Source of the DNA: Haladaptatus cibarius D43
GTDB taxonomy: Archaea; Halobacteriota; Halobacteria; Halobacteriales; Haladaptataceae
Reading direction: 5' to 3'
Assembly: GCF_000710615.1 (NCBI RefSeq)
Contig: NZ_JDTH01000008.1
Location: 20,183-84,182, forward strand
Length of the DNA: 64,000 nt
The translations under genes and the position numbers were made by a program. The notes under the pieces are model-generated. The model was not told the DNA's origin. It made no database searches and saw only the letters and a program-made list of their open reading frames with translations. Positions 17,478-34,868 of this stretch are shown piece by piece (within the stretch, counting starts at the first letter, position 1; each line of letters starts with the position of its first letter).

Positions 17478-19269
17478 GTTTCAATGCCGTAGTGGCTTTT
17501 CTAGCTTCTGCGACTCGCTCATGGTTTGGGTATCGTCGCTACTGGATTCGTTTCAATGCCGTAGTGGCTTTTCTAGCTTCTGCGACGATGACGTGGACGT
17601 GGGGCGACCAATAGACCTGACTGGTTTCAATGCCGTAGTGGCTTTTCTAGCTTCTGCGACACCGCTTCGTTCGCAACGACCACGTCGTAGAGTGGTTTCA
17701 ATGCCGTAGTGGCTTTTCTAGCTTCTGCGACGCCGCGAACCCCGTCACGGAGGGGAACGATGAGTAAGTTTCAATGCCGTAGTGGCTTTTCTAGCTTCTG
17801 CGACTGCGGGCATTTCAACGTTCACTTGCTTCTTGTCGTGTTTCAATGCCGTAGTGGCTTTTCTAGCTTCTGCGACCCATCGCTTTACCCAAGGCTTCAC
17901 GGTTCTTCAGGAAGTTTCAATGCCGTAGTGGCTTTTCTAGCTTCTGCGACCGGGCGGGAGTCGCTATTCTACCACGTATATCCCAGTTTCAATGCCGTAG
18001 TGGCTTTTCTAGCTTCTGCGACATGATGAGCGACCCGCCGTACTTCCTGATTTTGTAGTTTCAATGCCGTAGTGGCTTTTCTAGCTTCTGCGACCAACGT
18101 TCTCGAGGGCGACCGAAGCGGCTTCCGCGAAGTTTCAATGCCGTAGTGGCTTTTCTAGCTTCTGCGACAACGACTCCGGTAGTTTGCCAATAGAGTGGTA
18201 GGTTTCAATGCCGTAGTGGCTTTTCTAGCTTCTGCGACTGATGGCCGACCATATCTCCGGACAGCGAATGCAGTGTTTCAATGCCGTAGTGGCTTTTCTA
18301 GCTTCTGCGACTATGAAGCAGAAATCGAGCGAGAAATCGAACGAATCGGTTTCAATGCCGTAGTGGCTTTTCTAGCTTCTGCGACGCGGTCAGCATTGGG
18401 TGCGATGGTGTCGGGGTGACCCGTTTCAATGCCGTAGTGGCTTTTCTAGCTTCTGCGACAAGCGCGAGGACGGCTGTGAGCATTTCCATGAATGCTGTTT
18501 CAATGCCGTAGTGGCTTTTCTAGCTTCTGCGACGTTCTGGTACTGCTCTTCCAGCAGTTGACGGCCAAGCTGTTTCAATGCCGTAGTGGCTTTTCTAGCT
18601 TCTGCGACGCGACTGGAAGGACTCAACGCAGTCCTCTTCCCGTTCGGTTTCAATGCCGTAGTGGCTTTTCTAGCTTCTGCGACAGCCATTTACGCTCCCA
18701 GTGGTCACGGTCACTAAAGAGTTTCAATGCCGTAGTGGCTTTTCTAGCTTCTGCGACTTAAGCCACTCTCCAATATCCAGCCCACCATCTCCGCGTTTCA
18801 ATGCCGTAGTGGCTTTTCTAGCTTCTGCGACGCGCGCGACAGCATGGTGGCACGTCGAACGAGTGTTTCAATGCCGTAGTGGCTTTTCTAGCTTCTGCGA
18901 CAGCGGTTGCCGGTGGGAGGTGAGGTCGGAGGGAAATGTTTCAATGCCGTAGTGGCTTTTCTAGCTTCTGCGACTTGGTGCATCGTCGCCGACCGTGCCG
19001 GTTGAGACATTGTTTCAATGCCGTAGTGGCTTTTCTAGCTTCTGCGACAGACCAACACCGGCTACGACCCGACCGGCGACGACCTGTTTCAATGCCGTAG
19101 TGGCTTTTCTAGCTTCTGCGACCTGCGTGTTCTCGCGTCATGCAGACGCACCACCGTCATGTTTCAATGCCGTAGTGGCTTTTCTAGCTTCTGCGACCAG
19201 TTGTTCCACCGGGTTCCGAATCATCCGAACACGTTTCAATGCCGTAGTGGCTTTTCTAGCTTCTGCGAC
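17478..19269 (-). CRISPR. CRISPR array 1, 25 repeats / 24 spacers
   Basis: There are 25 identical 37-bp repeats at 70-75 bp spacing (starts 17478, 17550, 17624 and so on to 19233), with spacers of 33-38 nt. On the plus strand each repeat begins GTTTCAATGCC and ends TTCTGCGAC. The ATTGAAAC crRNA handle is therefore on the minus strand, and transcription runs from 19269 leftward. The leader lies on the right, next to cas2. The central stem is GCC-ACTAC-GGC. All repeats, including the leader-distal ones, are intact, suggesting a fairly young or well-maintained array. The spacer at 18386-18422 also occurs in array 2. Protein-like readings across this region are artefacts of the repeat. Confidence 0.98.
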
Positions 19270-19408: not shown

Positions 19409-19681
19409 TCAGAGAACGTTCGACTGTTCGTCTGGCGGGGTCACTCCGAGGTCGGTGATGTTCCCCAAACATGATTCACAGAGGCGGTATATCCGAATCC
19501 GGTCGCCGTCTTCTGGGTCGATATGCGATTCCAACTCGTCCTGCAGTTCGACGCGCTGAGTCTTCGTTATTTCGAGTTCGAATACGCTGTACTGCTGCCA
19601 CGCCCCGTATCGCTGGAGCGTTTGATAGACGCGGCGGCGGTTCGAGTCATCACTGACGTCATACACGATTGCGAGGCGCAT
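19409..19681 (-). CDS. cas2: CRISPR-associated endonuclease Cas2
   Basis: The 90-residue protein starts MRLAIVYDVSDDSNRRRVYQ and continues TLQRYGAWQQYSVFELEI, the canonical Cas2 ferredoxin fold with the conserved Asp after the first beta strand. With Cas1 it forms the integrase that inserts new spacers next to the leader. It is the last gene of the cas operon, 2 nt after the cas1 stop, and its stop is about 30 bp from the leader of array 1. Confidence 0.97.
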   Translation of the reverse strand: MRLAIVYDVSDDSNRRRVYQTLQRYGAWQQYSVFELEITKTQRVELQDELESHIDPEDGDRIRIYRLCESCLGNITDLGVTPPDEQSNVL

Positions 19682-19683
19682 GG

Positions 19684-20679
19684 TTATCGGGTGAATGTAA
19701 GCGCGTGGTAGTCGTCCAATTCACCGACGATGGCTTTCCGGAGGAGGATGACCTGCTGGCGAATCGCCTTTCTCCGACTCACCGAATAGTCGAAATACGG
19801 ATGCGTGAACTCCTCTTTCATGTAGTTGTCAAACTTCGAGAGATAGGTTTTGAATGCCTCGTCACGAAGGCGATTGTCCCGATTGAAGTCGTCGTGGGTA
19901 ATCGTTCCGCGATTCACGAGGCGAGTGACGAACGCATCGCAGAAACTCGTTCGGAACTCTTCTTGGAGGTCGAGCGCGAGCGACGGTTTTCCATGGCGGT
20001 CTGCATGCAGAACACCGAGGAAGGGGTCGAGGTTGTACTGCCGGAGGCCACTCAGTACTTCGTTTTTCATCATCACGTAAGTCAGCGAGAGGAGTGAGTT
20101 GATGTGGTCTTCCGGAGGCCGTTTCGTCCGCTTCTCGAACGTCCAGCCGTCTGCGAGTGTTTCGTCCAAGCGCGAAAAGTAGCGTTCGGCAGCCTCACCT
20201 TCGGTTCCCCGGAGCTCGTCCTTGTTCGTCGCGTTTTCAGCACGCACACCGAGATCTTTCAGCAAATCGGTTCCGTGAACCCCTTTCCGGCCGAGAAGCG
20301 TTCGTCCGTTGCGAATCTTCGCGGCAATCATCGCGCAAGCAATGGCGAGCTCATCGTCCGACGAGAGGGCGTATTGTGCGCGCCGAACCTCTGCGATGGT
20401 GTTTTTCTCAGGGACGAAACTCCCACGGTACTTGCCATGCTGGGTGAAATAGTTCAGGACAATGCCGTGTTCGTTCGCTCGTGCGACGAATGGTGTGCTG
20501 AAGTTCACCCCACCGAAGACGTTGATCGTGTCGAGTTGTTCCGTGGGATACGAAACGAGTTTGTCTCCGTCACCGTCCACATCCCAGACGACGATTCGGC
20601 CTCCATCGGTTCGAACCTGCGTTCCCTGTTTCGTGATGTAGACGACCGATTCATCGAACATTCCTTCAGTTGCTTTCAT
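19684..20679 (-). CDS. cas1: CRISPR-associated endonuclease Cas1 (type I-D/I-B branch)
   Basis: The start chosen is MKATEGMFDESVVYITKQGT at 20679; an upstream in-frame extension lies inside cas4 and is not protein-like. The 331-residue protein has the Cas1 N-terminal beta domain and the catalytic helical domain: LLSLTYVMMKNEVLSGLRQY (Glu), LDPFLGVLHADRHGKPSLAL (His) and DLQEEFR (Asp/Glu), the three metal ligands. It integrates prespacers with Cas2. It overlaps cas4 by 14 nt. Confidence 0.95.
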   Translation of the reverse strand: MKATEGMFDESVVYITKQGTQVRTDGGRIVVWDVDGDGDKLVSYPTEQLDTINVFGGVNFSTPFVARANEHGIVLNYFTQHGKYRGSFVPEKNTIAEVRRAQYALSSDDELAIACAMIAAKIRNGRTLLGRKGVHGTDLLKDLGVRAENATNKDELRGTEGEAAERYFSRLDETLADGWTFEKRTKRPPEDHINSLLSLTYVMMKNEVLSGLRQYNLDPFLGVLHADRHGKPSLALDLQEEFRTSFCDAFVTRLVNRGTITHDDFNRDNRLRDEAFKTYLSKFDNYMKEEFTHPYFDYSVSRRKAIRQQVILLRKAIVGELDDYHALTFTR

Positions 20680-21274
20680 TGTGTATCTCCTGCTCGAATG
20701 CAGTGCCCGTTGCTTTGTCGGGTTCAAGCATCGCGGTTTCTTCTGGCATACAGTACTCGCGGGCCGAACAGGCCTCGCACTTTTTTCGATTGTCAGTAAG
20801 TGGTGGAACCGATTCGACAGACATCGACCGCATCGCTTCGATTTGTTCCTGAACCGTTTTGCGGTGGTTTTCAGTGATTGGAATATGCATCCGCTGATCG
20901 GTTTCGTAGAGGTAAATCGCCCCTTCACGAACAGATTCACCGAGATGTTCTTCTAGTAGCAGACAGTATCCTGCGAGTTGGAGTTCGTCGCTCCGATAAT
21001 AGTCGCCACTTTCGGCACGTTTCCGTTCGACGGGAACGACTTGGTCATTACCGAGATCCAGCACATCGATCTTGCCCTTGAGTCCCAACTCCTCGGATTC
21101 GAGATAGAGTTCATTCAACCAGTTGCCGCGAGTCGACTGATTTTCGTGTTTCGTTTTGCCTTCAACCCGATAGTAGTTCCGTCCCTGCGTATTGTAGAAG
21201 TGTAAATACCAGTAGCGACGTGGACAGTAGCTGTATTGGTTGAGATCGGAGACGTTGACGAGTTCTGAAGTCAT
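20666..21274 (-). CDS. cas4: CRISPR-associated exonuclease Cas4
   Basis: The 202-residue protein has the Cas4 layout: SDLNQYSYCPRRYWYLHF with the first iron-sulfur Cys, the RecB-like core (GKIDVLDLGNDQVVPVERKR with Asp and ExK, DELQLAGYCLLLEE with the Gln-Tyr motif), and CEACSAREYCMP with the last three cysteines. Cas4 trims prespacers and selects those with a correct PAM. It overlaps cas3 by 4 nt. Confidence 0.95.
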   Translation of the reverse strand: MTSELVNVSDLNQYSYCPRRYWYLHFYNTQGRNYYRVEGKTKHENQSTRGNWLNELYLESEELGLKGKIDVLDLGNDQVVPVERKRAESGDYYRSDELQLAGYCLLLEEHLGESVREGAIYLYETDQRMHIPITENHRKTVQEQIEAMRSMSVESVPPLTDNRKKCEACSAREYCMPEETAMLEPDKATGTAFEQEIHNESN

Positions 21275-23160
21275 ATTTGTCGGCGGTGAACCTCAATGGT
21301 CGGTGGTCCAGACCCCTCGTCACCAACGTCGATTTCGTACGTCGCTGTGGTGAGACGCCGTGGGACGATAGCGTCGGTGATGCGGACAACATCAAAGAAT
21401 CGATGGAGAAGCTCGGTTGAAACGCCGAAATCGTCTTTTCGGCTCATGTGGTCGATTTTCGGGCGAATTTTGTCCTGGAGCGTTTTCTCGATCTTACCCG
21501 TCGGCTCGTCGTATCTCGTTGGTTCCGTCTCGTAAGCGGGGAGTCGGGCTGTTACAAGCGAAAGTGAGTTCTCGTCACTTGGCTTGACTCGGAGAACGGT
21601 TCCCTCTCGAACACAATCAATCTCGTACCCACGTAGTGTCCGACCGAGGTCGTACGTTGTCAGTCCGAGCCGGTCGCCGCGCGGATATTCGATTTGTGCC
21701 GAGAGTGAACGACCTCGAAGCCCCCGAAATACTTCGAAACATTCCTTTGTGAATTTGAGGAGTTTATTTACTTCCGCATCGTAAGGTTTCCCTCCAAGAC
21801 CATCAATTGCGTCCAGTTCGTCGTTCACGTCCTCAATGAAATTTCGCCAGCGGCCGTACTGGTCGTTGTTGGATGCAAGGTCTTCGAATATTTCGGGATT
21901 AAACCAACCATAGCCATCTTCCCGGACTTCAATCCCATATGCACCTCGAAGCCCCATCAGGTCACCGAGGGCTTTTGGAGCCATTCGTTCTTCTTGCAAG
22001 CCATCGTATACTTGCTTGGTGAATGTCTGGAAATCGACATCAGTTCCCCAAGGCCCTTGTCCCAGACCGTAAATGTGGACTGTCGCCTCGGATGCTCGCC
22101 CAGCACGTCCAAATCGCTGGAGGAATGCACTGGGCCGGGTCGGATTTTCCATGATGAGCGTCTCTACGTCGTAGTCAAGCCCAACCTCACCCTTACTGGT
22201 CGTGTTCAGTATATAGAACGTTTCGTCGTCAAGGTCAACCAGATCATCGTTCGTGTCGAATCCATTATCTTTTTCGGTGTGTTTGAAGACGGTTTCATAC
22301 TCGTCCGCCAGATAATCGTGAAAGTCGTTGCTGTCTTTCGCACTGTTGAACGCAAGTACGACACGGGGTTCATCGTGGTCGTCTGTTGTATTGATCTCTT
22401 CGTGGAGTAACTGCGCAACTGCATCGCGTACTTCCACGATTCGGCGTTCCTCGTGCCGAACAACTTCGACGCGCTGTCGAAACCGGTCTCCGTTTTCGAC
22501 ATACTCTGCTTCGATATTCTGTACGTCGAGTTGCAACTGCGTCCGAACGAACTCGACGAAATCTTCGTTCGGCGTTGCGGATGCGAGTATAATCTTCGGA
22601 TCGACTTGTCGTTCCGAAATTATTTTGATTTGCAGGAGAAGTCCGCTTGCCGCCAGTGGATCGTAGAAGTGGAATTCGTCGTAGACGATGGCGTTGAAGT
22701 TGTCAAAAAATCGCATCGCATGATCACCGCTGTACATATCCTGAATCGTCGCTTGCAAAATATCAGGGTTCGTTAGGATGACATCGTAATCGTTCTCATA
22801 CGTATCGAGGAAGCCAAGTAGGTTTTCAGTCCGTCTGTGAGCGTAGCCTTCCAGCGTTTCACCGTTCAATACGGCGGCATCGACTTCGGCATTCACGAAC
22901 CGCTCGTGCTGTTGACGAAGCAATGCGTTCGTCGGATAGACGAGGAGTGTAGGTTGATGAACGCTTATAAGTTCGTGGAACGTCGCTGTCTTCCCCGCAC
23001 CAGTGGGTGCGCGAACCACAGAAACAGGCGTATTTCCGTCGTGAACCCACTCGACAACGCGGTTTTGAAATGACCGTGCCTGATCGAAACCAAGATCTCT
23101 CAGTCCGTACTTCGCAGGTTCAGTCGCTAAGGATGCATCCCCGACGGTGAACTGATTCAT
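21271..23160 (-). CDS. cas3: CRISPR-associated helicase Cas3' without HD domain (type I-D)
   Basis: The 629-residue superfamily 2 helicase has APTGAGKT (51-58), DEFH (161-164), ILASATP, TSKGEVGLDYDVETLI and QRFGRAGRA. There is no N-terminal HD nuclease, as expected for type I-D, where the HD nuclease is on Cas10d. It unwinds and translocates along target DNA after recognition. It overlaps csc1 by 1 nt and cas4 by 4 nt, so these are one translation-coupled operon. Confidence 0.93.
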   Translation of the reverse strand: MNQFTVGDASLATEPAKYGLRDLGFDQARSFQNRVVEWVHDGNTPVSVVRAPTGAGKTATFHELISVHQPTLLVYPTNALLRQQHERFVNAEVDAAVLNGETLEGYAHRRTENLLGFLDTYENDYDVILTNPDILQATIQDMYSGDHAMRFFDNFNAIVYDEFHFYDPLAASGLLLQIKIISERQVDPKIILASATPNEDFVEFVRTQLQLDVQNIEAEYVENGDRFRQRVEVVRHEERRIVEVRDAVAQLLHEEINTTDDHDEPRVVLAFNSAKDSNDFHDYLADEYETVFKHTEKDNGFDTNDDLVDLDDETFYILNTTSKGEVGLDYDVETLIMENPTRPSAFLQRFGRAGRASEATVHIYGLGQGPWGTDVDFQTFTKQVYDGLQEERMAPKALGDLMGLRGAYGIEVREDGYGWFNPEIFEDLASNNDQYGRWRNFIEDVNDELDAIDGLGGKPYDAEVNKLLKFTKECFEVFRGLRGRSLSAQIEYPRGDRLGLTTYDLGRTLRGYEIDCVREGTVLRVKPSDENSLSLVTARLPAYETEPTRYDEPTGKIEKTLQDKIRPKIDHMSRKDDFGVSTELLHRFFDVVRITDAIVPRRLTTATYEIDVGDEGSGPPTIEVHRRQI

Positions 23161-23861
23161 TACAACACCTCCGGAACAACGTGTTCGCGAACGAACTCGG
23201 GACTCGCCCCGACGAAGTGCTGAAGTCGCGGGTCGTTTCCACGGCGGAACGCCGAACTGTGTTCCATTAATTCGGTGAGTGTACTCTTGTTGAGGTCATA
23301 GACCTCCGACAGTAGATACTTGTTGAGGACGAGGGTATCCTGCTCGCACTCTTGGGCTCGAAACTCACCGGTCTGTTTGACACCCATGCGGAAGAATGGG
23401 CGTGTAGGGATCGGTTTATCGCTCCAGACAGTAAACTCGAACGTCGACCCAGGGGCGAGTCCAATATAGTTTCGAATCGTCTGATAAGCCGCACCGGAGT
23501 CCTCCAAAATCGAGGGAACTGATTTGTCGCCAGTGATCTGTTTTGCGAGGTCTGTGTCGTTCGTCGTGAAGTTTCGCTCGGATCGGTAGTCCGTACTACG
23601 GAAGGTTCGTTCGTCGGCTTCCACCGCAACTGGCCGCATGTCCGAAACGAAAAACGACGCATCCCGTAAGTGCGAGTAATCCGGAGTCGTCGCACGCTCG
23701 CCGAGTTCGACGTATCGTTTCTCCATCTCGAAGTACCGATAGCCGAGTGCATGCATGAGCGCAGTTGCGGATAACGTTGGCTGTGTACGGATTGCACGCC
23801 CCTCCGAGCTGGAGTAGAACAAGGGCGTGTAGAGCGTCGCCTCAAACGTCCGTTCAATCAT
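23160..23861 (-). CDS. csc1: Csc1, Cas5-type subunit of type I-D effector
   Basis: The 233-residue protein starts MIERTFEATLYTPLFYSSSE, with an RRM-like first strand. NYIGLAPGSTFEFTVWSDKP and FFRMGVKQTGEFR match the Csc1 pattern of a glycine-rich segment before a basic strand. Csc1 is the Cas5 family subunit of type I-D; it binds the 5' handle of the crRNA and helps read the PAM. It overlaps csc2 by 8 nt. Confidence 0.88.
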   Translation of the reverse strand: MIERTFEATLYTPLFYSSSEGRAIRTQPTLSATALMHALGYRYFEMEKRYVELGERATTPDYSHLRDASFFVSDMRPVAVEADERTFRSTDYRSERNFTTNDTDLAKQITGDKSVPSILEDSGAAYQTIRNYIGLAPGSTFEFTVWSDKPIPTRPFFRMGVKQTGEFRAQECEQDTLVLNKYLLSEVYDLNKSTLTELMEHSSAFRRGNDPRLQHFVGASPEFVREHVVPEVL

Positions 23862-24804
23862 CGGTTTGGTTGAAGCTCTCCCGTGCGTCTTCCATTAGGT
23901 GGCTAAACTCCGCTTGGAGTATCTCATCGGCATCATCGGCTTCACGGGCGGCGACCGCATGGAGTTCGTGGAACCAGCTTGGGACATCCTCGGCACCCTC
24001 GAACGTACCATAAACATTCCAGTCGTCACGACGCACTGCTTCGATATACTCACCGAGGCTTTCTTCGAGTCGGTCGTCTTCACCGTGATATTCCAGTAGG
24101 AATTCACCCGTAGACAATGACGTGTCGTGGTCACCGAGAATGATGCCGAGAACGGTATTTCGAATGTTTCGCCCTGTCCGTGTCTCCCGTGCGCCGTACT
24201 TACCGGTGTTCAGGATATTGTGGAGTACGTACAGCAACATCGGTCCGGTCGCCGCTTCCAGCGTGATAAAGTGAATGAAGTCACTACCGGGCTGAACTTT
24301 CACGAAGTCGAACAAAGCCTGAGATTGGTTTTGCTCGTCGTCCTGCATTGTCCCAGTTTCGTAGACCGCATTCCGAGTTTCTTTGTTCATCAAGTCGTAC
24401 TCGTTGTTCGTGTACGTGTAGCCCTCAACGACCCGAGACTTGATTGCGAAATCTTGGCTGCCAGTTCCAGCTAACCCGTACGTGAGCGTACCAACGTTTA
24501 GTGACTTATCAAGGTCATCGGGTTCGTTATAGGTGTAATCTTCGTGGATGAGCGAGCCATCCTCGTCCAGTCGCCGGAGTAGGTCAAGACCGGTCAGTCG
24601 TTCCTTGCTAGTGAACTTCTCGCCGTTTACCTGTGCATGAAGTTTGTCGTCGAACTCTTGTGTTTCCGCACGGTCGTGTTCCGAGTTCCGAAACAGAGTC
24701 GGTTCGGTCACATCGCGTCTTACGATGAGCGTGACGGACGGCTTTCGGGTTCGGTAGATGCTGTGCGATTCGACGAGTCCAGTATCGGGGTAATCAAGCG
24801 TCAT
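23854..24804 (-). CDS. csc2: Csc2, Cas7-type backbone subunit of type I-D effector
   Basis: The 316-residue protein contains TLIVRRDVTEPTLFRN early on, KERLTGLDLLRRLDEDGSL, and FIHFITLEAATGPMLLYVLH later. These are hallmarks of Csc2: a Cas7 RRM core with a leading LI.R..TEPT.LR motif. Several copies wrap the crRNA. It overlaps csc3 by 4 nt. Confidence 0.9.
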   Translation of the reverse strand: MTLDYPDTGLVESHSIYRTRKPSVTLIVRRDVTEPTLFRNSEHDRAETQEFDDKLHAQVNGEKFTSKERLTGLDLLRRLDEDGSLIHEDYTYNEPDDLDKSLNVGTLTYGLAGTGSQDFAIKSRVVEGYTYTNNEYDLMNKETRNAVYETGTMQDDEQNQSQALFDFVKVQPGSDFIHFITLEAATGPMLLYVLHNILNTGKYGARETRTGRNIRNTVLGIILGDHDTSLSTGEFLLEYHGEDDRLEESLGEYIEAVRRDDWNVYGTFEGAEDVPSWFHELHAVAAREADDADEILQAEFSHLMEDARESFNQTDD

Positions 24805-27236
24805 TGTTGGTTTTCGAAGTGTTGGTCAACGGTATAGTAGTACGTGTTCACGAGCGCGTCTTCCCAGTCCGAGAGTTTCTTCAGGTCGGTGAGTTTTTCC
24901 TCTTCGAGGTAGGATTGAACGCTCTCAACGAACTGTTGGGCCTCTTCAGGATCTGGGTAGCCTGCATACTTTTCGCGGTGTGCTGCCGCATACACCTGTC
25001 CTTGAACGTATTCTTCCTGCTGGTCACCTTCCAAGCCTTGGCTCTTAGCAGTCAGAATCGCGTCAAGCGTTTCACGGAATATTTTCGTCTTCTTGTACTT
25101 GCTGTCGAGGCTGGATGTGCCGAGAAGGTCGATACCTCGTTCGGCAACGGTTTTCATATTCATAAGTGAATCTGCGTGGTAGTTCTCGAAATACTCCCGA
25201 AGATCCGGAAGTCGAGTAGCGTTGTCATGGTTGACAACAGCGAAGTTGGCGATGCTGTGGAACGTATCGCGGTCGAGATGCAGGTACGAATTCGATAAAT
25301 TCGCGTCCTGCCCAACCATGCTCATGATTTTGAACAACTGGAGCGCACAGCGAAGGTGAGAATCGGTTCGCTCGTCCGTCACAAAGTCGGGAAGCGGGCC
25401 GAATCGTTCCACCTCGTCCAGTCTGAGGAGTTCTTGCGGTCGGGTGGCCTCCTCGTCAGTGAAAACCGTATCCGCGCTCTCGAAGCGCGTAAACGGTCGT
25501 CCTACGACCACCTTCATCCCGGCATCTTGGGCAGTTTGCATCACCTGCCGGATGACTGCCATCCGGTGGTTTTCACCCAACACGTAAATCGGCTGGATGA
25601 AATACTGCGAACTGACGAAGCTCGTAGTAACATCCGTATCATCTAGTTCGTCTGCATCTCCTTGGACGACGTTGCCTACTCGCCGACTACGGACTCGGAC
25701 ATCACCGAGGAAATCATCAAAGTAAAAGTACGCAACTTCAAGTGAATTGTTTGTACTTACGTCGCTTCGTTCACAGATGTCCGCAAGAAGCGCGTATTCC
25801 AGATTGCAGACCTCACAGATTGATTTATACTTCGCGTGCGGGGGAACCCGACGCGAATATTCCTGTGTCCGGTAAATTGCACTCAACCCTTTCTGATACT
25901 TCGTATCGGTCTCAGTTCCACAGAGGAAACACATTTCCTCTTTCACGCCGAGATCGGGCGTTATCAACCCCTCAAAGAATCGGTCAACGACTGACCCGAT
26001 CGCATCGCTCTCTGGTTCAAGATCATCATGGAGTTCAGGACGAACCTCTCGAGCGAATGATTTGAGGAAATCAGCGTGTTCCTCGTAGTGTTGAACGAGA
26101 TACGCCACGAAGTGGAGTTTGACTTTTTGGACACCCTGTTCGTCTTTAATCCGGTCGTAGGCGTCTTGCACGTCGGGGTCATCGAAGTCCGACCGACCAT
26201 CAACGTAGACAGACTTTGCCAAAGTCGGGAAGTACTGGTTAAACTCATCGGGAATATACTCGAAAGGTTCAACGCCAGCAGATCCTCGCTCTAGCAAGTC
26301 ACGGAACGCATCGGCGATAATTTCCTCCTTATCCTCGGGTTTAATTTCGACTTCCGAGAGGATATCGTAGTCAAATGAATTCCAGTTGAGTTTGCACGAG
26401 AACGAGAACTCAGACTTGGTACCAATGTTTTCTGCGGCGGATTTCTCAACAATCTCACGGAGGTCATCCCGCTCGATTGCCTCCCCGAGGTATAGAATCT
26501 CGTTCGGTGAACTCCCGATTACGACGCCGCTTGCTTTGCGGTCGGTCTCGCCAGCGATAACTTCTTTTGCCGTTCCTAGAAGCACATCGTTTAGCACCGG
26601 TTGTTCGAGTTCGGTGAACTCGATACGATGGACGGTTTTATCGCCGAAGTGTGTAGCGAGTTTGTGTTCAACGCCTTCAACACCGTCTCGAAGGGCAACA
26701 GAAGCAGTCTGGTCGCCAATACGGCAATACCGCGCTAAACCGGAAAATTCGGTGTCAGTACCGCGCGTCTCTCGACTATCCTCACGGGTTTCTGTCCGCT
26801 GGACGAGATAATGGAGGTCGTCACGGTAGCCATCGCCGAGAAATTCCTCGATACCGAAGTCGTCGCCCTCTCCTTCTTCGGGATTGAAATAGTAGTCGAA
26901 CGCCTCACTGGAGTTTCCATCCGCATCGAAACCGTACGCCTCGCGCACGTACTTGTTTGTATCGTGGAGTGCGAGTGCCGATGCGAGGACTTTGATGTCT
27001 TCCTCGTAATCTGCGACATCCTCATCAGTGCCAACCGCGTTAAATACGAACGTATTCACGCCGATGGTTACAGCGTTGAGGATGTGCGCTGCAAGCGAGG
27101 AGTTCGCCGATGAATCGACCTTGGCATCGTATGCACCTGCGGCGTTGATGACGTTTTCGTAGAGGTTTTGACCCTCAACAAGCCATTTGTGCGCCTTGTA
27201 GGTGTCACGGTGTTTTGAACTTTTTAATTCCGACAT
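24801..27236 (-). CDS. csc3: Csc3/Cas10d, large subunit of type I-D effector with HD nuclease region
   Basis: The 811-residue protein has an N-terminal HD-like stretch (LASALALHDTNKYVREAYG, His91-Asp92), a zinc-binding region with CFLCGTETDTKY and CEVCNLEYALL, and a helical C-terminus. This is the Cas10d organisation that defines type I-D. Cas10d supplies the DNA nuclease that Cas3' lacks here and takes part in PAM recognition. I find no GGDD motif, so cyclic oligoadenylate synthesis is not expected. It starts 2 nt after the small gene upstream. A type I-B Cas8b is the alternative, rejected because csc1, csc2 and an HD-less cas3 accompany it. Confidence 0.9.
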   Translation of the reverse strand: MSELKSSKHRDTYKAHKWLVEGQNLYENVINAAGAYDAKVDSSANSSLAAHILNAVTIGVNTFVFNAVGTDEDVADYEEDIKVLASALALHDTNKYVREAYGFDADGNSSEAFDYYFNPEEGEGDDFGIEEFLGDGYRDDLHYLVQRTETREDSRETRGTDTEFSGLARYCRIGDQTASVALRDGVEGVEHKLATHFGDKTVHRIEFTELEQPVLNDVLLGTAKEVIAGETDRKASGVVIGSSPNEILYLGEAIERDDLREIVEKSAAENIGTKSEFSFSCKLNWNSFDYDILSEVEIKPEDKEEIIADAFRDLLERGSAGVEPFEYIPDEFNQYFPTLAKSVYVDGRSDFDDPDVQDAYDRIKDEQGVQKVKLHFVAYLVQHYEEHADFLKSFAREVRPELHDDLEPESDAIGSVVDRFFEGLITPDLGVKEEMCFLCGTETDTKYQKGLSAIYRTQEYSRRVPPHAKYKSICEVCNLEYALLADICERSDVSTNNSLEVAYFYFDDFLGDVRVRSRRVGNVVQGDADELDDTDVTTSFVSSQYFIQPIYVLGENHRMAVIRQVMQTAQDAGMKVVVGRPFTRFESADTVFTDEEATRPQELLRLDEVERFGPLPDFVTDERTDSHLRCALQLFKIMSMVGQDANLSNSYLHLDRDTFHSIANFAVVNHDNATRLPDLREYFENYHADSLMNMKTVAERGIDLLGTSSLDSKYKKTKIFRETLDAILTAKSQGLEGDQQEEYVQGQVYAAAHREKYAGYPDPEEAQQFVESVQSYLEEEKLTDLKKLSDWEDALVNTYYYTVDQHFENQQ

Positions 27237-27238
27237 TT

Positions 27239-27481
27239 TTAAACCTTCTTTACAGTGGATAGTGCCACAACACGTCGCCCAGGCTTTTCTTTCTTTGAAT
27301 TACAATTTACAATTTGATATTCGTGTCCAGTCTTAAGTGGTATCCCGTCTCTTACAAACTCAACTTTTTCCCCAGTTTCCAGTTTCATCAGACCGATTTG
27401 ATTATCTTGGCCGGTTTCCTGTTGATAGATCCCTCGCACTTGAAAAGACATTCCGAGTAAGTCTGATGCTTGAATTCCCAT
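27239..27481 (-). CDS. Small beta-rich protein, first gene of the csc3 operon
   Basis: The 80-residue protein starts MGIQASDLLGMSFQVRGIYQ and continues with short alternating strands (IGLMKLETGEKVEFVRDG, HEYQIVNCNSKKEKPGRR), resembling a small OB-fold or SH3-like barrel. The frame is open further upstream but that part crosses the regulatory region, so ATG 27481 is preferred. It is only 2 nt from csc3 and thus coexpressed with the effector. I do not know it as a standard type I-D component. A nucleic-acid-binding accessory subunit, regulator or anti-CRISPR-like modulator are all possible; none can be shown. Confidence 0.65.
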   Translation of the reverse strand: MGIQASDLLGMSFQVRGIYQQETGQDNQIGLMKLETGEKVEFVRDGIPLKTGHEYQIVNCNSKKEKPGRRVVALSTVKKV

Positions 27482-27507
27482 TATATCTGAATAGAATAGA
27501 CCCACGA

Positions 27508-27514
27508 TATTAAA
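27508..27514 (-). promoter_or_regulatory. TATA box of the csc3 operon
   Basis: The minus strand reads GATTTAATATC here, with TTTAATA as a weak TATA box. Transcription would begin near 27484, at the ATG at 27481, giving an essentially leaderless mRNA, common in haloarchaea. The guide target site begins about 10 bp upstream of it, where TFB would bind. Confidence 0.5.
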
Positions 27515-27520
27515 TCTAGG

Positions 27521-27559
27521 GTGAAGGGAGTTAGCCTCATTCTCTCCCTTTCCACGGGA
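27521..27559 (+). promoter_or_regulatory. Predicted target site (PAM plus protospacer) of the CreA/CreR-like RNA
   Basis: GTG at 27521-27523 is followed by AAGGGAGTTAGCCTC (27524-27538). The first 15 bases after the pseudo-repeat at 27614 are AAGGGCGTTAGCCTC. The only mismatch is at position 6, and positions 18, 20 and 21 also match. GTG fits the GTN/GTH PAM class reported for type I-D. A 36-nt protospacer would end at 27559, directly next to the plus-strand TATA box at 27561 and just upstream of the minus-strand TATA box of the csc3 operon. Binding of the effector here could block either promoter. Confidence 0.6.
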
Positions 27560-27560
27560 A

Positions 27561-27568
27561 TTATATAG
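27561..27568 (+). promoter_or_regulatory. TATA box of the CreA/CreR-like RNA
   Basis: TTATATAG on the plus strand is a good archaeal TATA box. A start about 25 bp downstream, near 27590, would fall inside the pseudo-repeat, so the RNA could begin there and still carry the handle and spacer-like sequence. It points against the cas genes, into the 3' end of cas6. Confidence 0.5.
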
Positions 27569-27576
27569 TGTGTTAA

Positions 27577-27650
27577 CAAATGAAGTACTAGGGAGTCTAC
27601 AAGGGATTGAAACAAGGGCGTTAGCCTCGATATCACTGAAAACCCGTGCT
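27577..27650 (+). ncRNA. CreA/CreR-like minimal CRISPR RNA in the cas6-csc3 interval
   Basis: The last 11 bases of the pseudo-repeat (27603-27613, GGGATTGAAAC) equal the 3' end of the array 2 repeat, including the 8-nt handle ATTGAAAC. Its upstream half keeps only traces (GAAG then CTAG at 27582-27591). A spacer-like sequence follows from 27614, and a GAAAACCC match to the repeat core occurs at 27638-27645, possibly a second, more decayed repeat. CreA in Haloarcula is a crRNA-like guide encoded beside cas genes; it pairs partly with a promoter and lets the effector repress it, there a toxin RNA. CreR guides repress the cas promoter. The target found 90 bp away fits this logic. No toxin RNA is evident, so CreR-like autorepression is favoured. 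Confidence 0.6.
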
Positions 27651-27669
27651 TGGACTCCCAAATTCAATA

Positions 27670-28539
27670 TCATAGATTCACCTGCACATTTCCACAGCCT
27701 CGAGCAACTGCACTTCCGACGCCGGAATATTCGCCGAACAGAGCCAGGGCGACGACTGCGTTCTGTACGCTCTCGCTTGCATCCTTCAGCGCATACTCAC
27801 AGCGACCAGTGAATCCCTGCCGGAAAATTGCACGGGATTCGTCGTCCTCGGTTCGAATGCGGTTCACCAGAACGCTGTGGGTATCGTACGCTCGTGCATC
27901 AGGTTTCTCGATTATATGTGCGAGCACGTCCTCGTCATCGATTGCGAGTTCGTGTTCGTCAGGAGCGGTACGATTCCATTTTCCACAGAGCGACTGGAAA
28001 ACGGCGCGGCGGTGTGGAAACATTGTCGTCACGTCGCCCGCTTCCTCGATGCAAGTCGGGGTACGAAACTCCATTTCGATGGACGGATTGTCGTACTCGC
28101 TCGCCTGCGCGAGAAGGGCTTCGTGGCTCGTGTTTTCGCTCTCGAAAATCTCGACGTGGAGCGTTCCGTTCGTCAACTCCAACTCGTTGCCGTCCAACAC
28201 GAGCGCACTCACGAGTGACTGAAAGATGTCGTCGTCGCGTGAATCAACGATACCCAGCGACAGTTCGTACGAGCGGTCGCTTCGAACCGTTTTGTGATAG
28301 TCGCGGTTGCTGTTTCCAAACACACCAAGAAGACCGCTACTATGCAAACTGCCGAGCGGAGAGTCGTGGATGTGTTCGCTCACAGCTGCATCAACGTCAT
28401 TGAGCGCCGCTAACAGCGCGCTGTAGACAGAGTACCCATCAGAGATGGGAACCGGAAACGTCTCCGTTGGGCGCACTGTGAGTGTGATCCGCCGAAGACG
28501 ATGAGTGCCGGTCGTCGGTGTGGGAGTTGTCTGCGACAC
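27670..28539 (-). CDS. cas6: CRISPR pre-crRNA endoribonuclease Cas6
   Basis: The 289-residue protein ends with FGEYSGVGSAVARGCGNVQV, the glycine-rich loop that defines Cas6. The N-terminal half (HRLRRITLTVRPTETFPVPI) is the first RRM-like domain. The catalytic His is likely His33-His57 region (EHIH, GSLHSSG), not certain. It cuts the repeat just before the ATTGAAAC handle. Two repeat variants with swapped stem base pairs must be processed by this single enzyme. It is separated from the csc3 operon by about 190 bp that hold the CreA/CreR-like element, so it has its own promoter, divergent from csa3. Confidence 0.92.
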   Translation of the reverse strand: MSQTTPTPTTGTHRLRRITLTVRPTETFPVPISDGYSVYSALLAALNDVDAAVSEHIHDSPLGSLHSSGLLGVFGNSNRDYHKTVRSDRSYELSLGIVDSRDDDIFQSLVSALVLDGNELELTNGTLHVEIFESENTSHEALLAQASEYDNPSIEMEFRTPTCIEEAGDVTTMFPHRRAVFQSLCGKWNRTAPDEHELAIDDEDVLAHIIEKPDARAYDTHSVLVNRIRTEDDESRAIFRQGFTGRCEYALKDASESVQNAVVALALFGEYSGVGSAVARGCGNVQVNL

Positions 28540-29439: not shown

Positions 29440-32400
29440 GTCGCAGAAGCTAGAAAACCCAGAACGGGATTGAAACCGGTCTACACGTCACGTCCCGTCC
29501 AACGTGTCACCAGTCGCAGAAGCTAGAAAACCCAGAACGGGATTGAAACAAAACAACCCTTACAATCCCTCAAGAGACCGAACAGAGTCGCAGAAGCTAG
29601 AAAACCCAGAACGGGATTGAAACACTATTTATAATTGTTGGGAAGTCTTCGACTGCATCTGGTCGCAGAAGCTAGAAAACCCAGAACGGGATTGAAACTC
29701 GTCGTAGACGACGCTGACGACGTACTCGCCGAGTCGCAGAAGCTAGAAAACCCAGAACGGGATTGAAACCCGTCGATGCCGACGCTCCGCTTGCGCAAGT
29801 TCGAGCGTCGCAGAAGCTAGAAAACCCAGAACGGGATTGAAACTCGTGGGTCAGAAGAGCATCGCACCCCCGACAACGTCGCAGAAGCTAGAAAACCCAG
29901 AACGGGATTGAAACTATTGACGAAGACGACGACGGTGCCTGTGACCACCGTCGCAGAAGCTAGAAAACCCAGAACGGGATTGAAACTCCGGACCAAGGAT
30001 GCACCCACATCATTTTGCTCCGGTCGCAGAAGCTAGAAAACCCAGAACGGGATTGAAACTCGTCTCTTTGAGTGAAGCGATGTTGCTGGCGACCGTCGCA
30101 GAAGCTAGAAAACCCAGAACGGGATTGAAACAACTCTGTTTGAACAGTTGTGTTTCCGTCTGAATCAAGTCGCAGAAGCTAGAAAACCCAGAACGGGATT
30201 GAAACGGATTCCTTCTTGTCACGGATGTTCTCTCGCTTCTCAACGAGGTCGCAGAAGCTAGAAAACCCAGAACGGGATTGAAACTCGCGTGTCCTGATTG
30301 CATCGAAGAGATTACGGGAACTGTCGCAGAAGCTAGAAAACCCAGAACGGGATTGAAACGGAGTGCCCTTGTTCGAGCCATTGATGTTTGCATAGTCGCA
30401 GAAGCTAGAAAACCCAGAACGGGATTGAAACCGGAACTCGTGCTTGTCGTCTCCGAGTCGTCATTCGTGTCGCAGAAGCTAGAAAACCCAGAACGGGATT
30501 GAAACGCGTAGGTCGTAATACTCGGTACTGTCGTGAATCAGTGTCGCAGAAGCTAGAAAACCCAGAACGGGATTGAAACTCGGCGTCGTCGGAGTCGTCG
30601 GAGTCGTCGGAGGTCGCAGAAGCTAGAAAACCCAGAACGGGATTGAAACGGGTCACCCCGACACCATCGCACCCAATGCTGACCGGTCGCAGAAGCTAGA
30701 AAACCCAGAACGGGATTGAAACTCCAACCGTGTCTGAAGGTGCGCAAGAGTCCCCGCGTAGTCGCAGAAGCTAGAAAACCCAGAACGGGATTGAAACAAT
30801 GCACAAAACGGCTCGCTCCGCGTGCTGGAACCGGTCGCAGAAGCTAGAAAACCCAGAACGGGATTGAAACTATTTTGTCGCCTGCTCCACCCTCCTCGAA
30901 TCGGTGTCGCAGAAGCTAGAAAACCCAGAACGGGATTGAAACAACGGTTATTCCGCTCATCTTTTCCCTCTGTGTTTTTGTCGCAGAAGCTAGAAAACCC
31001 AGAACGGGATTGAAACTTTACACCCATTCTCGGGATTGTTGTACTGCATATCCGTCGCAGAAGCTAGAAAACCCAGAACGGGATTGAAACTTTGAAGGTC
31101 TTGTCATCACCGAAGCGAAACTCGTTGGTCGCAGAAGCTAGAAAACCCAGAACGGGATTGAAACTCGTCATCCACGGCGACACGCTCAAAGTCGAACGGC
31201 GGTCGCAGAAGCTAGAAAACCCAGAACGGGATTGAAACGACAGACAGGGGCGGGGACAAATCCGTCTTGGTCTGGGTCGCAGAAGCTAGAAAACCCAGAA
31301 CGGGATTGAAACGCTGTGGTTGTCGTGCCGCGTTTGTGCATTTGAGTCGCAGAAGCTAGAAAACCCAGAACGGGATTGAAACGGAGCGGAATCACCCTCG
31401 ATTGTTCAAACAAGGAGGGTCGCAGAAGCTAGAAAACCCAGAACGGGATTGAAACAATCTGATGTCGTACTCAGTGACGCTCACTGCGGGTGTCCTCGTC
31501 GCAGAAGCTAGAAAACCCAGAACGGGATTGAAACTTGGGCCAACTGCCCGAGGAGTCGTTCACGTCGGTCTGTCGCAGAAGCTAGAAAACCCAGAACGGG
31601 ATTGAAACGCGAAGGGGCAGAAGGCGCTCTCGCAAGACCGTCGAAGTCGCAGAAGCTAGAAAACCCAGAACGGGATTGAAACGTACACCCCGGTGCGGTC
31701 ACATCGACCAGCGATGCGGTCGCAGAAGCTAGAAAACCCAGAACGGGATTGAAACTCTTCTGGTTCTGTCATGGATTCGTCTGTCTGCGAGGGTCGCAGA
31801 AGCTAGAAAACCCAGAACGGGATTGAAACAGTTCGGGCGTGACAGGCGTCCCGTCCTCCGTTTCGAGTCGCAGAAGCTAGAAAACCCAGAACGGGATTGA
31901 AACAGTTCGGGCGTGACAGGCGTCCCGTCCTCCGTTTCGAGTCGCAGAAGCTAGAAAACCCAGAACGGGATTGAAACGGATCTCCTGAACGGTGGAGTAC
32001 GACCCGCTGGCGGGTCGCAGAAGCTAGAAAACCCAGAACGGGATTGAAACGGTCGACGGACACGACGCCGAGCGGCCCGCGCGGGGTCGCAGAAGCTAGA
32101 AAACCCAGAACGGGATTGAAACGCTGTGCGTCCTGTGGCGGCACGGTCGAAACTGGTTTGTCGCAGAAGCTAGAAAACCCAGAACGGGATTGAAACCGAT
32201 TTCTGCCATTTGAGACCTCTTAGATGATGTTGAGTCGCAGAAGCTAGAAAACCCAGAACGGGATTGAAACTGCTGGCCGTCGGTGACGGTCGCGGTCGCG
32301 GTCGGCGCGTCGCAGAAGCTAGAAAACCCAGAACGGGATTGAAACCGGTCTGCATCGTTCGCGGGACGAAGCGCGTGGGGTCGGTCGCAGAAGCTAGAAA

Positions 32401-34828
32401 ACCCAGAACGGGATTGAAACGAGAACGCGGCGGGGTATGGCACGTCGTTGACTGAGTCGCAGAAGCTAGAAAACCCAGAACGGGATTGAAACTGACATCC
32501 AGCGGGTTACACGCCCGTTGTACGAAAGTCGCAGAAGCTAGAAAACCCAGAACGGGATTGAAACAGGATGGCGAGGAGTCCGGTTTCAGCAGGGGAGACA
32601 GTCGCAGAAGCTAGAAAACCCAGAACGGGATTGAAACTCTGTCATTCGCCATCACCCGACAGTTTCGCCATCGGTCGCAGAAGCTAGAAAACCCAGAACG
32701 GGATTGAAACAGTGTGCTACATCGAAGGCATTCCCACGCTATCTCCTCGTCGCAGAAGCTAGAAAACCCAGAACGGGATTGAAACTCGTCATGACTCAGT
32801 TGTGGGGTTGTGTTGACTGTCGAGTCGCAGAAGCTAGAAAACCCAGAACGGGATTGAAACCTGGAACGACACCGCCGCGTCCAGCATCACCCGCAGTCGC
32901 AGAAGCTAGAAAACCCAGAACGGGATTGAAACAGGAGTGCGCCGGTCTTCTCGTCCATTCCTCGTTCGTCGCAGAAGCTAGAAAACCCAGAACGGGATTG
33001 AAACTGATTCACCCGTGAGTCCATTATTAAATATTCCTGACGTCGCAGAAGCTAGAAAACCCAGAACGGGATTGAAACTGCATGGCGCGCGCACTCGTCT
33101 CAACGGCCTTGCGGGTCGCAGAAGCTAGAAAACCCAGAACGGGATTGAAACATGTGACCGGAAAAGTCGCGCTTCCCTACGGGGTCTTGTCGCAGAAGCT
33201 AGAAAACCCAGAACGGGATTGAAACCGCTATCAACCGGATTCGAGACGCAAACGACCAGGTCGCAGAAGCTAGAAAACCCAGAACGGGATTGAAACTTGC
33301 GTCCGGCAAGGGGGTGTCCTCGCGGTACTCCATGTCGCAGAAGCTAGAAAACCCAGAACGGGATTGAAACTGAGGCAGACGACTACAACCTTCGAGTCCC
33401 CGGATTGGTCGCAGAAGCTAGAAAACCCAGAACGGGATTGAAACAGCAGTTCGCTGTCGCGTCGGACGCCTCCCCACGGTCGCAGAAGCTAGAAAACCCA
33501 GAACGGGATTGAAACTCTTCTGGTTCTGTCATGGATTCGTCTGTCTGCGAGGGTCGCAGAAGCTAGAAAACCCAGAACGGGATTGAAACTCTTCTGGTTC
33601 TGTCATGGATTCGTCTGTCTGCGAGGGTCGCAGAAGCTAGAAAACCCAGAACGGGATTGAAACTGGCAGAGTTCGAACTTACGTTCGAGGTCACCTAGTC
33701 GCAGAAGCTAGAAAACCCAGAACGGGATTGAAACCGGACTGGCCTCCCTGCTCCCCCGACGTGCCTGTCGCAGAAGCTAGAAAACCCAGAACGGGATTGA
33801 AACCATTTGTAAACGGTCATTGTTCTATTTCCAAATGTTCAGGGTCGCAGAAGCTAGAAAACCCAGAACGGGATTGAAACTCATCGCCTGCGTCGGTCGC
33901 ACTCGCCGTCGCCTGGTCGCAGAAGCTAGAAAACCCAGAACGGGATTGAAACATGTGTCGGACTTGCAACATCGTCACGGAGTTCGGTCGCAGAAGCTAG
34001 AAAACCCAGAACGGGATTGAAACCGGATAAACACGATTCCGCTGTCTGTTCGCCCAGACGAGTCGCAGAAGCTAGAAAACCCAGAACGGGATTGAAACTG
34101 ATTAAAGGAATGCGTGATATTGGTGAAATGCCAGTCGCAGAAGCTAGAAAACCCAGAACGGGATTGAAACAGGTCTTCGACTACCGAACGGAGGTTGTTG
34201 TCTCTCGCGTCGCAGAAGCTAGAAAACCCAGAACGGGATTGAAACGCGTTGGTCATCGTCGGATTGCTAGTTGTTATCGACGGTCGCAGAAGCTAGAAAA
34301 CCCAGAACGGGATTGAAACCGGGAGGTATCGCCGGTTGGTGTCAGGGTGGCGGAGTCGCAGAAGCTAGAAAACCCAGAACGGGATTGAAACGACTCTGCG
34401 AAACTCAGAGCGTTTGGCGCGGTCGTGTCGCAGAAGCTAGAAAACCCAGAACGGGATTGAAACACCGCGACATGAAGTTCGGGCGTCACGAGGGCAAGAG
34501 TCGCAGAAGCTAGAAAACCCAGAACGGGATTGAAACAGGTCTTCGACTACCGAACGGAGGTTGTTGTCTCTCGCGTCGCAGAAGCTAGAAAACCCAAACC
34601 GGGATTGAAACGAAGAAGCGAAAGAAATCTCGAAATCGGCAAGCGCAAGTCACAGACGCTAGAAAGCCCAAAAAGGATTGAAACAGTTCCAACTCGCCGT
34701 TCTCAACGCCGCGAATCGGGTTACGGAAGCTAGAAAACCCAGCACGGGATTGAAACCGGATCAAGAAGGCGCTCGACGAGACGCTAATGAAGTTATGGAA
34801 GCTAGAAAACCCAGGACGGCATTGAAAC
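29440..34828 (+). CRISPR. CRISPR array 2, main part, 74 repeats
   Basis: The 37-bp repeat begins GTCGCAGAAGCTAGAAAA and ends GGGATTGAAAC; it recurs every 70-75 bp (starts 29440, 29513, 29587 and so on). The first 70 copies look identical. Copy 71 (34575) has three substitutions around the loop. Copies 72-74 (34649, 34720, 34792) are strongly decayed, one of them 36 bp long. The leader is on the left. The stem is CCC-AGAAC-GGG, a compensated variant of the array 1 stem. Duplicate spacers: 31756, 33516 and 33590; 31830 and 31904; 34171 and 34537. The spacer at 30650-30685 is shared with array 1. Progressive decay marks the leader-distal, oldest end. Confidence 0.98.
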
Positions 34829-34868
34829 CATTGTGATGACCCGGTACCGTGGAGTTCCGGTTCAGTAG

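What the first reader, a model, noticed from the sequence alone, without database searches (positions are those of the whole stretch)
27521..27559. Guide-like 15-nt match with its only mismatch at position 6, behind a GTG PAM, between opposed promoters
The 15 bases after the pseudo-repeat (27614-27628) match 27524-27538 at 14 positions. The sole mismatch is position 6, which type I guides do not read because every sixth base is flipped out. GTG directly precedes the site, consistent with the GTN/GTH PAM class described for type I-D. The predicted protospacer ends against the plus TATA box and lies just upstream of the minus TATA box of the csc3 operon. The effector could thus repress its own operon, the guide, or both. 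Partial matching would allow binding without cleavage.
Basis: partly seen in the sequence, partly recalled or inferred. Interest (0 to 1): 0.95.

Follow-up and report, generated by a model that had tools for sequence, protein, structure and literature searches.

The report
CRISPR guide that silences its operon
Among its CRISPR immune genes this archaeon carries a stray guide unit whose guide matches the predicted promoter of those same genes, and four lineages keep such a match with different letters, so the immune complex likely uses it to turn down its own production.

Summary
The guide at 27614-27628 matches 27524-27538 at 14 of 15 positions behind GTG; position 6 is the only mismatch. Three further lineages carry a mini-CRISPR at the same place (cas6/cas10d junction, antisense), each with its own guide paired to its own target: GTG each time, seed 10/10, 10/10, 10/10 and 9/10, position 6 always mismatched, guide-target spacing 90-93 nt; swapped guides reach at most 8/10. 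A fifth lineage pairs poorly and its cas10d looks broken. Best reading: a type I-D counterpart of CreR/CreA, a crRNA-like RNA predicted to guide the I-D effector to the BRE/TATA edge of the cas10d operon promoter and repress it. Reviews I could read report CreR for I-B, I-E and V-A, not I-D; the primary paper was not held. The cassette is optional, comes with a small predicted OB-fold gene in four of five lineages, and lies antisense to cas6-cas10d read-through mRNA. Transcription, processing, loading and repression are untested; spacer hits support the GTN PAM in only 2 of 4 cases.

The parts
27521..27523 (+). GTG, PAM-like triplet
   Evidence: sequence; GTG also precedes the target in lineages B, C and E
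27524..27538 (+). target (protospacer seed and beyond), 14 of 15 identical to the guide
27508..27514 (-). predicted TATA box of the small gene-cas10d operon
   Evidence: by eye; PAM end to ATG is 39 nt here, 34-44 nt in B, C, E
27561..27567 (+). predicted TATA box of the guide unit
   Evidence: by eye
27591..27613 (+). first degenerate repeat, ending in the handle ATTGAAAC
   Evidence: last 11 bases identical to the array repeat end
27614..27636 (+). guide (spacer-like)
   Evidence: 3' limit by eye
27637..27659 (+). second degenerate repeat (TGAAAACCC...)
   Evidence: resembles the array repeat stretch AGAAAACCC (by eye)
27239..27481 (-). small gene, 80 aa, predicted OB fold, first gene behind the targeted promoter
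   Evidence: relatives in B, D, E; model pLDDT 74; OB-fold matches
27239..27673 (-). longer open frame starting at an ATG that overlaps the cas6 stop, in frame with the small gene
24801..27236 (-). csc3/cas10d
   Evidence: PADLOC Cas10_Id 1335.7 bits; no NCBIfam or Pfam hit
23854..24804 (-). csc2/cas7d
23160..23861 (-). csc1/cas5d
   Evidence: (below cut-off)
21271..23160 (-). cas3' helicase, type I-D
20666..21274 (-). cas4
19684..20940 (-). cas1, type I-D like
19409..19681 (-). cas2
27670..28539 (-). cas6
   Evidence: (below cut-off)
29440..34850 (+). main CRISPR array, repeat GTCGCAGAAGCTAGAAAACCCAGAACGGGATTGAAAC
   Evidence: ends approximate

Best explanation
A stray mini-CRISPR between cas6 and the cas10d operon carries a guide that matches, behind a GTG, the predicted promoter of that operon, and it is predicted to load the type I-D effector and so likely represses the operon that encodes the effector. 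Shown by sequence: degenerate I-D-like repeats around a guide; a GTG-flanked target beside the operon's TATA-like box; concerted change of guide and target in four lineages; conserved spacing. Inferred and untested: transcription from the plus TATA-like box; cutting by Cas6 to leave the ATTGAAAC handle; loading on Cas10d-Cas7d-Cas5d; a short seed-only R-loop that binds without destroying; block of transcription start; relief when array crRNAs or inhibitors take up the effector. It would be a type I-D counterpart of the CreR/CreA RNAs. The small OB-fold gene lies behind the same promoter and would be repressed with it.
For: Match and uniqueness. Covariation: own target 10, 10, 10, 10, 9 of 10 (A, B, C1, C2, E), foreign gaps 4-8; the true assignment of four guides to four targets scores 39, the next best of 24 assignments 32. 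Per position over A, B, C1, E: 1-5, 7 and 9-11 match 4 of 4, position 8 3 of 4, position 6 0 of 4, the rule found by mutation for type I-B CreA (PMC8501985, passages). Spacing 90, 93, 91, 91, 93 nt. L007 against L008: 0 of 63 differences over second repeat, guide and GGGATTGAAAT, against 26 of 204 in the rest of the gap and 68 of 840 in cas6; PAM plus 11-nt target 1 of 14, at position 6. GTN flanks in 2 of 4 followed spacer hits and GTN is the I-D PAM in Synechocystis (PMC10212523, passages). The I-B array repeat of this genome differs. Intact I-D gene set.
Against: No expression or promoter data. The window's own two followed spacer hits have GGG and GCC flanks. E has a second seed mismatch (position 8), of a kind that abolished type I-B CreA function. 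D guides reach only 5 and 6 of 10 ungapped, no better than foreign gaps; they pair better only if the target lacks base 6, and their cas10d looks broken. Close kin lack the unit (L002, L077, L009), and one relative keeps the guide but has lost target and promoter (L044), so it is dispensable. Promoters are called by eye.
Confidence: 0.8

Rival explanations
1. CrePA-like addiction: the guide RNA is mainly an antitoxin that keeps the small OB-fold gene silent; cas10d is co-regulated only because it lies downstream.
For: The small gene is first behind the targeted promoter in A, B, D and E; the unit is optional and scattered; CrePA is a known arrangement (PMC12737573, section 3.3 read).
Against: Lineage C keeps guide and target without the small gene. 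No KilA-N or any Pfam family at E below 0.01 in the five members, no PADLOC family in the window member. No toxicity data either way.
Confidence: 0.2
2. The guide represses chiefly its own plus promoter, whose TATA-like box abuts the far end of a 36-nt protospacer in the window.
For: Position of 27561-27567.
Against: The conserved contact is GTG to the operon box; pairing beyond about 15-20 nt is not kept, and the plus box was not shown to lie at a fixed place in relatives.
Confidence: 0.1
3. Relic of a CRISPR array or a self-targeting spacer that is decaying, without function.
For: Degenerate repeats; D and L044 look decayed.
Against: Concerted change in four lineages and 0 of 63 changes in the C unit.
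Confidence: 0.04
4. Chance match.
For: None found.
Against: 0 of 3000 shuffles for the seed in A, B, C1, C2; 9 of 3000 for the E seed; over 15 nt 0 of 3000 in A, B, C2, E and 3 of 3000 in C1; 7e-5 per position empirically.
Confidence: 0.01

Closest known systems
CreR, cas-regulating RNA (Liu et al. 2023, Cell Host Microbe; paper not held; known to me through passages of PMC13131331 and PMC12737573)
   Same: crRNA-like unit with limited match to a cas promoter; predicted self-repression
   Different: reported for I-B, I-E and V-A in those passages; here type I-D, GTG flank, unit antisense inside the cas operon, small OB-fold gene alongside
CreA of CreTA, type I-B haloarchaea (PMC8501985 and PMC9458426, passages)
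   Same: two degenerate repeats; seed 1-5 and 7-11 with 6 free; PAM at the BRE; in Haloarcula hispanica the unit sits in the cas6-cas8 gap, which also holds a strong cas promoter
   Different: there an RNA toxin is repressed; here the promoter leads into a protein gene and cas10d, opposite in direction to the guide unit
CrePA (PMC12737573, section 3.3)
   Same: guide RNA and effector repress a protein gene
   Different: CreP typically has a KilA-N domain; here a predicted OB fold, absent in lineage C, toxicity unknown
Cas9 self-repression (Workman et al.; cited in PMC13131331, passage; details recalled)
   Same: effector represses its own gene
   Different: type II and another kind of guide RNA

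Membership tests
CreR (cas-regulating RNA) | crRNA-like unit with degenerate repeats beside cas genes | tested here: met
CreR (cas-regulating RNA) | partial, PAM-flanked match to a cas promoter | tested here: met
   match and GTG; promoter called by eye
CreR (cas-regulating RNA) | Cas6-processed RNA bound by the effector | not testable with these tools
   needs RNA data
CreR (cas-regulating RNA) | measured autorepression of cas | not testable with these tools
   needs reporter or mRNA data
CreR (cas-regulating RNA) | not coupled to a toxin gene | tested here: inconclusive
   small OB-fold gene of unknown effect in A, B, D, E; none in C
CreA/CreTA | seed pairing at 1-5 and 7-11 with 6 free | tested here: met
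   10/10 in A, B, C; 9/10 in E; not met in D (5 and 6 of 10)
CreA/CreTA | an RNA toxin (creT) behind the targeted promoter | not tested
   a protein gene and cas10d follow; RNA toxicity was not examined
CrePA | protein toxin, typically KilA-N, behind the targeted promoter | tested here: not met
   no Pfam hit at E below 0.01; a toxin of another fold is not excluded
Type I-D effector | Cas10d, Cas7d, Cas5d, Cas3', Cas6 | tested here: met
Type I-D effector | GTN PAM in this clade | tested here: inconclusive
   GTC and GTT for L037 spacers; GGG and GCC for window spacers
Racr (RNA anti-CRISPR) | solitary repeat unit encoded by a virus | tested here: not met
   the units lie inside cas operons; definition from an abstract in a listing

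The most novel reading that the evidence does not exclude
A two-level autoregulator peculiar to type I-D: the same guide represses the cas10d promoter by its seed and, because the unit is antisense to the cas6-to-cas10d read-through mRNA and I-D Cascade binds matching RNA without a PAM, captures that mRNA along the whole guide, so the effector reads its own message as well as its own promoter. The unit travels as an exchangeable cassette at the cas6/cas10d junction.
Probability: 0.2. Interest if true: 0.88.

Novelty: new variant of a known kind. Interest (0 to 1): 0.75.

Why it matters
It would extend RNA-guided self-repression of CRISPR effectors to the type I/III hybrid subtype I-D. It adds comparative evidence, different guides each paired to their own target, that assays in a single strain cannot give. 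Because type I-D Cascade also binds RNA, the same unit may join DNA and RNA sensing. The seed rule and the GTG flank give single-base tests.

Tried and rejected
Chance: rejected. A first all-position control was swamped by array repeats and replaced by a masked one. A wider motif scan (NTTGAANN, 1181 sites, 23 hits) returned the four units again plus array repeats, an inverted repeat near csa3 and scattered hits; none of the others looked to me like a mini-CRISPR. Canonical haloarchaeal I-D loci (L048-L071, 24 loci of 23 genomes, within the 48 scanned) gave no ATTGAAAN hit. Type I-B as user of the guide: the genome has a Csh1, but the array repeat on that contig differs. PAM from spacers: window array against phages and plasmids: I followed H29 and H31 (flanks GGG and GCC) and not H24-H28, H30 or the phage hits, most of which fall on one low-complexity stretch; the array of L037 gave H57 and H58 (GTC and GTT); five further array searches gave no hit that I followed (H64 was left). 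Small protein: window member alone, no candidate, none in plasmids; the five-member alignment found 13 proteins, one the L078 protein in a longer form, the other twelve of lineage-D type, one of them identical to the L046 member. PDB sequence search with cas10d: none. Rfam scan of the window at gathering scores: none. cas10d fragments L027, L028, L030 and L082 were not examined at their junctions. The primary CreR paper is not held, so whether its supplement lists I-D candidates is unknown to me.

Full report
What is there. The window holds a type I-D locus on the minus strand: cas6 (27670-28539), then csc3/cas10d, csc2/cas7d, csc1/cas5d, cas3', cas4, cas1 and cas2 in contiguous or overlapping order, with csa3 divergent and a long array at about 29440-34850. 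Between cas6 and cas10d lie about 430 bases with a minus-strand 80-aa gene and, on the plus strand, a degenerate repeat ending GGGATTGAAAC, a guide, and a second degenerate repeat. The guide matches 27524-27538 at 14 of 15 positions behind GTG.

More than chance. GTN + 10/10 seed occurs once in the own genome, here; the reversed control pattern occurs twice. The strongest control is the relatives. cas10d searches of genomes and plasmids gave loci whose cas6-cas10d junctions I printed. Of 21 loci, 12 have cas6 and cas10d within 14 nt, two have 56-58 nt and no unit, and seven hold a unit (L006, L007 and L021 are alike, as are L008 and L022). One search adds L077, L084 and L085 without a unit, L080 and L086 with 172-173 nt before the aligned part of cas10d and no unit, and L078, L079, L081, L046/L083 and L031 with one. 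In plasmid loci L032-L035 the annotated cas6 and cas10d overlap or lie within 6 nt.

Five lineages. A is the window. B is L003 (Natronoglomus). C is L006/L007 (Salinibaculum, Halostella) and L008 (Natrinema). D is L046 and L081. In A, B, C and E the guides begin AAGGGCGTTAG, CTGAGCGATAT, AGTGGCAGTGC and CTAAGCGGTTA; the targets, all behind GTG, begin AAGGGAGTTAG, CTGAGGGATAT, AGTGGAAGTGC (AGTGGGAGTGC in L008) and CTAAGTGTTTA. Guides differ between lineages at 4-8 of 10 seed positions. In the A-B, A-C, B-C and C-E comparisons all of these are matched on both sides, in A-E 6 of 7 and in B-E 3 of 4. Position 6 never matches; if it were simply free, four mismatches in four would be expected about a third of the time, so this says only that position 6 is free. 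The four lineages are probably not wholly independent: place, spacing and promoter look alike.

Selection. Between L007 and L008 the second repeat, guide and GGGATTGAAAT have 0 of 63 differences, the rest of the gap 26 of 204, cas6 68 of 840 and cas10d 106 of 2376. PAM plus target has one change in 14, at position 6.

Geometry. On the operon strand the complement of the PAM (CAC) is followed by CCTAG (A, B), CTAAA (C) or CTCCCCTAG (E) and an AT-rich box, then an ATG 34-44 nt after the PAM in A, B, C and E (36 and 27 in D). That fits leaderless haloarchaeal messages (recalled); the promoter reading is by eye, and in C the first ATG is not the same in the two members. Guide and target are 90-93 nt apart in A, B, C and E.

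How it likely works. The effector, loaded with this RNA, would bind the BRE/TATA edge with a short R-loop and block transcription of the small gene and of cas10d to cas2, but not of cas6. Array crRNAs would compete for effector and so lift repression. The mutational rule for type I-B CreA (PMC8501985, passages) is the rule that these four lineages show. All steps past the sequence are inferred. The review of type I-D (PMC10212523, passages) gives GTN for Synechocystis and GTH for Microcystis; GTG is the one GTN triplet outside GTH, so it could favour binding without destruction. That is a guess.

Results against. The window's two followed spacer hits have GGG and GCC flanks, against GTC and GTT for two of L037. 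E has a second seed mismatch. D guides reach only 5 and 6 of 10 without gaps; with one target base missing at position 6 they pair better (by eye), the guide-target spacing is not 90-93 but 143 (L081) or more, and cas10d is split over frames in L046 and recognisable only at its start in L081. L044 keeps the guide but has lost target and promoter. Close kin such as L002, L077 and L009 have no unit. The unit needs at least 5 changes on the cas10d tree (28 rows, 7 with the unit) and 6 on the cas6 tree (29 rows, 8 with it; branches of strong support force 4); 64 and 101 of 500 label shuffles need as few, so it is not clearly clustered.

The small protein. In A, B, D and E a 78-85-aa protein precedes cas10d; identity to the window's is 17-22%. 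The model is a five-stranded barrel (mean pLDDT 74); the best PDB matches are OB folds, among them RPA70N (TM about 0.7 to the query; no match with E below 0.001). None of the five members has a Pfam match at E below 0.01, and the window's has none in PADLOC. It may be a toxin, a co-regulator or an effector partner; undecided.

The open frame. From an ATG at the end of cas6, the gap is open in A, B, C, E and D2 (L081) up to the small gene or cas10d, in frame with the small gene in 4 of 4 (A, B, E, D2); 68, 71, 124, 94 and 30 of 5000 shuffles are open (A, B, C1, E, D2). L046 has one stop. In C the ratio dN/dS of this frame is 2.1 against 0.09 and 0.14 for cas6 and cas10d, so the frame, rather than the protein, seems kept. 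This suggests that read-through message is translated across the unit. That message is the full complement of the guide RNA, and I-D Cascade binds matching ssRNA without need of a flanking sequence (PMC9123187, passages); cleavage of RNA is not shown there. This is the basis of the novel case.

Cassette. In B and E the unit is bordered by an 18-nt copy of the cas6 3' end, 461 nt apart in both (exact in B, 16 of 18 in E), so recombination between copies could restore the bare junction seen in relatives such as L009. No such border was seen in A by eye.

Novelty. Reviews that I could read name I-B, I-E and V-A for CreR or type I and V-A in general. Paper searches showed in their listed rows no report of a type I-D case; only listings and the passages named above were seen, and the primary paper was not available.

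Noticed in passing
window 27239-27673 (-); L003 7519-7983; L007 7699-7968: A reading frame that begins at the cas6 stop stays open across the antisense guide unit to the small gene or cas10d in five of six unit loci tested, although dN/dS in lineage C is 2.1; P0001 shows that a gene caller took such a frame for a gene.
   Followed up: partly
L003 7505 and 7966; L078 (reverse strand) 1005 and 1466: 18-nt direct repeats of the cas6 3' end border the cassette, 461 nt apart in both.
   Followed up: partly
L046 9037-9760; L081 846-1330: In lineage D the target lacks exactly the base at position 6, and cas10d looks broken.
   Followed up: partly
L044 around 10747 (same place as L031): The guide unit is kept but the target and operon promoter are deleted.
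   Followed up: no
window about 17540-19260: Second array whose repeat ends GGCATTGAAAC on the minus strand; the GCC...GGC exchange against CCC...GGG in the main array suggests a small stem before the handle.
   Followed up: no
L033 1262-1285, L059 3486-3509, L062 3638-3661: Inverted GGGTCCACGAA repeat at the csa3/cas6 side in three I-D loci, perhaps a Csa3 operator.
   Followed up: no
window 29477-29512; L087: First spacer of the main array matches a Haladaptatus halobius plasmid at 35 of 36 bases, with a GGG flank.
   Followed up: partly
L005: A contig filed under a Spirochaetaceae MAG carries a haloarchaeal-type I-D locus, probably a binning error.
   Followed up: no
G000 contig C10; L091: The genome also has a type I-B Csh1 with an array whose repeat (…GTCGGGTTGAAG) differs from the I-D repeats.
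   Followed up: partly
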